Assembly: GCA_015232405.1 (NCBI GenBank)
Contig: JADFZS010000011.1
Coordinates: 1-64,000 of the forward strand
Direction of reading: 5' to 3'
DNA: 64,000 nt
From: Magnetococcales bacterium
Lineage (GTDB): Bacteria > Pseudomonadota > Magnetococcia > Magnetococcales > JADFYX01
This document shows, piece by piece, positions 53,810 through 54,008 of the stretch; within the stretch, counting starts at the first letter, position 1; each line of letters begins with the position of its first letter. The translations under genes and the position numbers were made by a program. The notes under the pieces were generated by a model. The model searched no databases and had not been told where the DNA came from. It saw nothing but the letters and a program-made list of their open reading frames with translations.

Positions 53810-54008
53810 TTTGACTGAACTTTTTAACCTAGAAACGGCGGTTGGCGGTGCGTACATGGCGTAACATATTGGTTTAGCTGGTGTAACAGAGCAAATCGAA
53901 GTCACCTTGTTGGTGATGAGACTTTGCTCTGTTATGCCAGATGAATCAATAGGTTGCGTCAGGTGCGTGCTGACAACTGCTGTTTCTAGGTTTAAAGGTA
54001 ACGTTGAA
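53810..54008 (+). repeat. Long gapless imperfect palindrome (97-nt arms, 5-nt loop); candidate structured RNA or MITE-like element
   Basis: Centre at 53909. Hand pairing of 53810-53906 with 53912-54008: about 68 Watson-Crick, 16 G.U (on + strand RNA), 13 other. Core arm TAACAGAGCAAA/TTTGCTCTGTTA and distal AACCTAGAAAC/GTTTCTAGGTT are perfect. Confidence 0.9.

What the first reader, a model, noticed from the sequence alone, without database searches (positions are those of the whole stretch)
53810..54008. 199-nt gapless palindrome whose divergence is G.U-compatible on one strand only
Between the ABC exporter genes and a PEGA gene lies an inverted repeat with 97-nt arms, a TTGTT loop and no indels (every pair sums to coordinate 107818). 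Outside Watson-Crick pairs, my hand alignment finds about 16 positions that become G.U pairs if the + strand is transcribed and only one transition in the opposite (A.C) sense, inside an internal loop. Neutral decay of a DNA palindrome should give both directions about equally, so the pattern points to selection on an RNA helix, or to strand-specific deamination-like change. No ORF is convincing here, and on the + strand it runs antisense to both neighbours. It could be a structured ncRNA, a palindromic MITE, or a remnant of one.
Basis: seen in the sequence. Interest (0 to 1): 0.85.

Follow-up and report, generated by a model that had tools for sequence, protein, structure and literature searches.

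The report
One-strand hairpin MITE of IS1380 type
The palindrome is one of dozens of copies of a 163-base parasitic DNA element that has no genes of its own and is probably moved by another element's enzyme, and comparison of many copies shows that its lineages were selected to fold into a long hairpin in one strand only, which suggests that RNA takes part in spreading a DNA transposon.

Summary
The palindrome is real (70 of 81 pairs; z -12.4), but its true limits are 53828-53990: a 163-bp MITE with 17-bp inverted repeats and TTTAA target duplications. About 40 or more full-length copies lie in this genome, and hundreds in related Magnetococcales. Elements with the same ends and a similar length occur in many bacterial phyla; 70 of 103 carry CACC-N5-GGTG, nearly always at the centre. 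IS1380-family insertion sequences with the same ends carry that motif 78-101 bases from the transposase end, usually with the start codon in its loop. So the MITE looks like two inverted copies of that IS end joined at the start-codon hairpin. Fresh mutations in resident copies ignore pairing (WC to G.U 20, to A.C 17). Changes along older lineages preserve it: G.U 62, A.C 16, compensatory 50. A-to-G and C-to-T both contribute, on both arms, which excludes one-strand deamination. Orientation to genes is random. Selection therefore acts on copies that spread, for pairing of one strand (RNA, or less likely ssDNA), not on a host ncRNA. Which step needs the hairpin is unknown. Novel: architecture, spread, and evidence that one-strand pairing was selected. 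Ordinary: it is a MITE.

The parts
53828..53990 (+). 163-bp palindromic MITE; + is the strand that pairs with G.U
   Evidence: Limits from about 40 own-genome copies that differ outside; covariance-model hit 53828-53990, 176 bits on +, 99 on -
53823..53827 (.). left target-site duplication TTTAA
   Evidence: matches 53991-53995; other copies carry ATTAT/ATTAT, ATGAT/ATGAT, TTCAA/TTCAA and so on
53991..53995 (.). right target-site duplication TTTAA
53828..53844 (+). left terminal inverted repeat CCTAGAAACGGCGGTTG
   Evidence: same type of ends on IS1380-family elements of other genomes
53974..53990 (-). right terminal inverted repeat (CAACTGCTGTTTCTAGG on +)
53845..53895 (+). left arm of the stem
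   Evidence: covariation with the right arm
53923..53973 (+). right arm of the stem
53903..53915 (+). central motif CACC-TTGTT-GGTG
   Evidence: in 70 of 103 elements from many phyla against 0.9% of shuffles; in IS1380 relatives 78-101 bases from the transposase-proximal end, with the start codon in its loop in most
53847..53853 (+). direct repeat GGTGCGT, copy 1
   Evidence: 115 bases from copy 2; deletion between them gives exactly the 48-bp mini elements
53962..53968 (+). direct repeat GGTGCGT, copy 2

Best explanation
The feature is a non-autonomous transposable element (MITE). SHOWN: fixed ends, 5-bp target duplications, dozens of near-identical copies at unrelated sites, and IS1380-family insertion sequences elsewhere with the same ends. 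INFERRED: an IS1380-type transposase moves it in trans, and it arose as two inverted copies of the transposase-proximal IS end (inverted repeat, leader, start-codon hairpin CACC-NN-(A/G)TG-GGTG), possibly by a template switch at that hairpin. SHOWN by comparison: along spreading lineages the pairing of one strand is kept through G.U and compensatory changes, whereas fresh mutations in resident copies ignore it. INFERRED: an RNA of the + strand, probably from an internal start, folds into the stem of about 68 bp and helps the element to spread (for example by affecting transposase expression or access, or by sparing the host). Which step is unknown.
For: About 40 near-full-length matches in the genome and at least 60 covariance-model hits, the cap; limits and duplications. 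Same ends in Magnetococcales, Nitrospirae, Nitrospinota, Verrucomicrobia, Chlamydiae, Legionella, Tibeticola and others. IS1380-like IS of 1634-1706 bp with these ends: Tibeticola, two Nitrospirae genomes, two other proteobacterial genomes, one with clean ATTTA duplications (L290); a Polaromonas plasmid IS and a Magnetococcales remnant. The motif is central in the MITE and 78-101 bases in from the IS end. Covariation: 33 pairs with double changes against 17.9 in shuffles, 92% of cells paired, 0 of 500 shuffles as good. Tree of 138 elements: internal branches G.U 62, A.C 16, mismatch 46, compensatory 50; short terminal branches 43, 28, 46, 3; kept versus broken P = 2e-5. Routes to G.U on internal branches: C>T 35, A>G 28, spread over both arms. 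Consensus versus private changes in two genomes: G.U:A.C 24:1 against 20:17, P = 4e-4.
Against: No closely matching transposase was found in drafts of the own genus; an ordinary IS1380 element there has other ends. The MITE arms do not align with the IS leader above chance (z about 1), so descent from the IS end rests on ends, motif and spacing. No sigma-70-like promoter in the element. A ssDNA hairpin would also favour G.T over A.C. Compensatory changes alone could come from arm-to-arm template correction. The 48-bp mini elements without arms have intact duplications, though deletion in place would also leave them.
Confidence: 0.7

Rival explanations
1. Arm-to-arm correction: the palindrome extrudes or templates itself, so one arm overwrites the other and the arms co-vary without any RNA.
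For: Long quasi-palindromes are known to be corrected this way (own knowledge); nearly perfect palindromic members exist (L194, L233); compensatory changes are common.
Against: It restores Watson-Crick pairs and cannot make G.U four times commoner than A.C on one strand (62:16), nor keep the same wobble pairs across lineages (45:119, 48:116, 56:108).
Confidence: 0.12
2. The hairpin acts as single-stranded DNA (a strand-specific step of replication or transposition), not as RNA.
For: G.T is better tolerated than A.C in DNA too; small hairpins are recognised as ssDNA in other IS families (own knowledge).
Against: The likely mobiliser is a DDE transposase (PF13701), which acts on duplex ends (own knowledge); copies sit in both orientations.
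Confidence: 0.15
3. A structured ncRNA serving the host at this locus.
For: Very stable fold; intergenic in 38 of 43 own-genome copies examined.
Against: Many copies at unrelated sites; private mutations neutral to pairing; random orientation (11 co-directional, 11 opposed); no Rfam family at its threshold, only weak miRNA-hairpin hits.
Confidence: 0.03
4. Strand-specific deamination made the one-sided pattern.
For: Would give G.U in one sense only.
Against: A>G is nearly as frequent as C>T among changes to G.U on internal branches, on both arms; recent mutations in the own genome show C>T 6 against G>A 10.
Confidence: 0.02
5. The sequence is kept as an in-frame protein insert, like Rickettsia palindromic elements: 163 + 5 = 168 = 3 x 56, with frame 2 of the minus strand mostly open.
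For: Frame -2 has no stop in 77% of own-genome elements; in-frame insertions in a nitrite/sulfite reductase gene (L002) and a glutamyl-tRNA synthetase-like gene (L227).
Against: Across 51 lineages frame 2 is not clearly better than the others (P 0.06 and 0.20); lengths elsewhere are not all 1 modulo 3; only 2 of 47 own-genome elements read through; it would not cause G.U over A.C.
Confidence: 0.1

Closest known systems
Correia elements / NEMIS (Neisseria), ERIC and similar RNA-folding bacterial MITEs
   Same: Small repeats with inverted ends; transcripts fold; RNase III or RNase E processing reported (review PMC10969869, PMC2649163)
   Different: Other taxa; here IS1380-type ends with 5-bp duplications, a start-codon-like motif at the centre, spread over phyla, and comparative evidence for one-strand pairing
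IS1380-family insertion sequences (e.g. IS1247: 1672 bp, 5-bp direct repeats, PMC3281130)
   Same: Same 17-bp ends on a divergent subgroup; 5-bp duplications; DDE_Tnp_1_4 transposase
   Different: No transposase in the MITE; the subgroup falls below NCBI's IS1380 cut-off (157 against 180 bits)
MITEPye1 (Paracoccus yeei; PMC11578231)
   Same: MITE predicted to fold into a long RNA stem-loop
   Different: Attributed to IS1182; 1-3 chromosomal copies; no covariation analysis in the passages read
Rickettsia palindromic elements
   Same: Palindromic repeats of about 150 bp that can sit in frame inside genes (PMC10969869)
   Different: Here mostly intergenic; in-frame reading is occasional

Membership tests
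MITE (non-autonomous DNA transposon) | short, terminal inverted repeats, no transposase gene | tested here: met
   163 bp, 17-bp ends, no convincing ORF
MITE (non-autonomous DNA transposon) | target-site duplications at most copies | tested here: met
   5-bp exact in 83 of 129 element calls, others decayed or mis-paired
MITE (non-autonomous DNA transposon) | multiple dispersed copies | tested here: met
MITE (non-autonomous DNA transposon) | mobilised in trans by a related transposase | not testable with these tools
   needs a mobility assay
IS1380-derived | ends shared with an IS1380-family IS | tested here: met
   L279, L280, L281, L289, L290, L358
IS1380-derived | 5-bp duplications | tested here: met
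   family value from PMC3281130
IS1380-derived | matching autonomous copy in the same genome | tested here: not met
   none in own-genus drafts; present together with the MITE in Nitrospirae and Tibeticola genomes
Structured RNA | covariation beyond shuffles and beyond the neutral pattern of recent mutations | tested here: met
   internal against terminal branches
Structured RNA | transcript of the + strand | not testable with these tools
   no expression data
Rickettsia-type in-frame palindromic element | open frame kept across independent lineages | tested here: inconclusive
   P = 0.06

The most novel reading that the evidence does not exclude
A small DNA transposon family spread across bacterial phyla depends on an RNA hairpin of its own: selection during spread, not at the resident site, keeps one strand paired, so RNA folding is part of how this DNA-only element propagates.
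Probability: 0.35. Interest if true: 0.8.

Novelty: new variant of a known kind. Interest (0 to 1): 0.62.

Why it matters
Bacterial MITE transcripts are known to fold, but it is usually unclear whether the fold is selected or is a by-product of a palindrome. Here fresh mutations in resident copies serve as the neutral control, and the answer is that one strand's pairing was selected while elements spread. That makes a specific question testable: does a non-autonomous DNA transposon need its own RNA? The family is also widespread and recognisable (17-bp ends, start-codon-like centre, about 163 bp).

Tried and rejected
Rfam: only weak miRNA-hairpin hits far below their thresholds. An ordinary IS1380 copy in the own genome (L069) as parent: its inverted repeats are TAACCCGGATATTTCATGAA, not the MITE ends. 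A 1398-bp element as a full-length parent: it is an IS110-family IS inserted in the central loop of a MITE copy. Alignment of the MITE arms to IS leaders: not above chance. Coding selection as cause: plus codon-phase counts (internal P 0.03, terminal 0.5), weak and unable to cause the G.U asymmetry. Purine loading: G left/T right 97 against T left/G right 86, none. Viral contigs: no match. Papers: no MITE with these ends found among the open papers searched.

Full report
OBSERVATION. Its 97 gapless pairs are 68 Watson-Crick, 16 G.U, 1 A.C and 12 mismatches. The + strand folds at -120.8 kcal/mol (z -12.4) and the - strand at -65.7. The true unit is shorter: 53828-53990, 163 bp, with 57 WC, 13 G.U, 1 A.C, 10 mismatches; the outer pairs belong to the TTTAA target duplication and flank.

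WHAT IT IS. A search of the own genome found about 40 near-full-length copies, most 94-99% identical, in unrelated places. Their alignment defines the ends CCTAGAAACGGCGGTTG...CAACTGCTGTTTCTAGG and 5-bp duplications that differ from copy to copy (TTTAA, ATTAT, ATGAT, TTCAA). In an end-motif search of the fetched loci that allowed any length of 36 to 260 bases, 163 was by far the commonest (91 distinct sequences; next 48, with 11). A covariance model finds it in 12 of 48 genomes of the order, with at least 60 (the cap) in the own genome and 55 in a member of another family.

WIDE FAMILY. Many are metagenome bins, so single assignments may be wrong, and the length range was set partly by the pattern. 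The centre was not part of the pattern, yet 70 of 103 elements carry CACC-N3-7-GGTG, nearly all at the centre, against 0.9% of shuffles. Arms are fully paired in some lineages and not in others; the G.U bias is clear in the lineage shared by Magnetococcales and some Nitrospirae/Nitrospinota bins, not in all.

THE PARENT. IS1380-family hits in genomes that carry the MITE include insertion sequences of 1634-1706 bp whose ends match the MITE ends (L279 Tibeticola, L280, L281, L289, L290). L290 has clean ATTTA duplications; in the others they are decayed or differ. The transposases are 50-60% identical to each other where compared; that of L289 matches Pfam DDE_Tnp_1_4 and scores below NCBI's IS1380 cut-off. 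All five IS carry the motif at 78-101 bases from the transposase-proximal end. In several the start codon lies in the loop: CACCCGATGGGTGAAGC, CACCCTGTGGGTGAGGC, and in a Polaromonas plasmid GGAGGTCACCAAATGGGTGAAGCC, where the annotated gene starts at that ATG. A Magnetococcales remnant reads CCTAAATCCTGCAGTTG...GGAGTCACCAAATGGGTGAGGC with the motif at base 79; the MITE motif is at 76, and one MITE subfamily reads GAAGTCACCCAATGGGTGATGAG. The MITE therefore looks like two inverted copies of that IS end joined at the start-codon hairpin. The intervening arms do not align above chance, so this step is inferred.

IS THE HELIX SELECTED? Three tests. (a) Covariation on 16 representatives, gapless over 163 columns: 92% of cells paired, 33 pairs and 108 cells with double changes against 17.9 and 39.2 in shuffles, 0 of 500 shuffles as good. 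(b) A tree of 138 elements with parsimony reconstruction: on internal branches WC pairs changed to G.U 62 times, to A.C 16, to a mismatch 46, with 50 compensatory double changes; on short terminal branches 43, 28, 46 and 3. Kept against broken differs at P = 2e-5; G.U against A.C at P = 0.013, and the internal 62:16 departs from equality at P = 2e-7. (c) Within a genome: consensus G.U:A.C is 13:1 in the own genome and 11:0 in G015, but private mutations give 10:6 and 10:11 (pooled P = 4e-4). G.U arises by A>G and C>T in similar numbers and on both arms, so it is not deamination. Caveats: orientation was first set by folding energy, then found to agree with sequence identity for all 91 tested; elements are short; reconstruction is by parsimony; shuffles do not remove relatedness; counts are events on an estimated tree, so the P values are approximate.

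MECHANISM. Selection is visible on lineages that spread and absent in resident copies, and orientation relative to neighbouring genes is random (11 co-directional, 11 opposed, of 38 intergenic). A function for the host at each site is thus unlikely. The strand sense points to RNA of one strand. Read-through from outside would serve both strands equally, so an internal start is implied, but none was recognised. Arm-to-arm correction can explain compensatory changes, not the one-sided wobble. A ssDNA hairpin remains possible.

FUNCTION LEFT OPEN. Whether the hairpin helps by regulating transposase, by resisting or inviting RNase III, or by softening the damage of insertion is not decided. The single mismatches at 18, 29, 39 and 50, about one helical turn apart and mostly conserved, may matter.

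NOVELTY. MITEs and their folding transcripts are known (PMC10969869; MITEPye1 in PMC11578231). I found no description of this family in the open papers searched; subscription papers and ISfinder were not available. I call it a new variant of a known kind.

Noticed in passing
L130:522-1919 (own genome C277): A full-length copy is interrupted by an IS110-family element inserted in the central loop of the MITE hairpin (CACCTTG/TTGGTG); the composite keeps TTGAA duplications.
   Followed up: partly
L133, L134, L135, L143, L146 (own genome): 48-bp mini elements with intact duplications equal the 163-bp element minus the 115 bases between its two GGTGCGT repeats, as expected from slippage across a hairpin.
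   Followed up: partly
L002:1506-1668 and L227:5838-6000: In-frame MITE insertions add about 55 codons to a nitrite/sulfite reductase gene and to a glutamyl-tRNA synthetase-like gene; 163 + 5 is a multiple of three.
   Followed up: partly
window 53845, 53856, 53866, 53877 and their partners: Single mismatches at element positions 18, 29, 39 and 50 recur every 10-11 pairs; the first three are unpaired in most lineages.
   Followed up: partly
L358:880-3150 (Polaromonas sp. P1-6 plasmid CP087967): An IS1380-like IS with MITE-type ends sits about 360 bp from a 234-bp element that also carries these ends and the CACC-GGTG motif.
   Followed up: no
L194, L233: Nearly perfect palindromic members in other proteobacteria (70 Watson-Crick pairs), perhaps young palindromes before divergence.
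   Followed up: no
own genome contigs C43, C49, C133, C296, C52: Several contigs of the draft end inside or next to MITE copies, so the copy count is a lower bound and the autonomous partner may be lost in assembly gaps.
   Followed up: no
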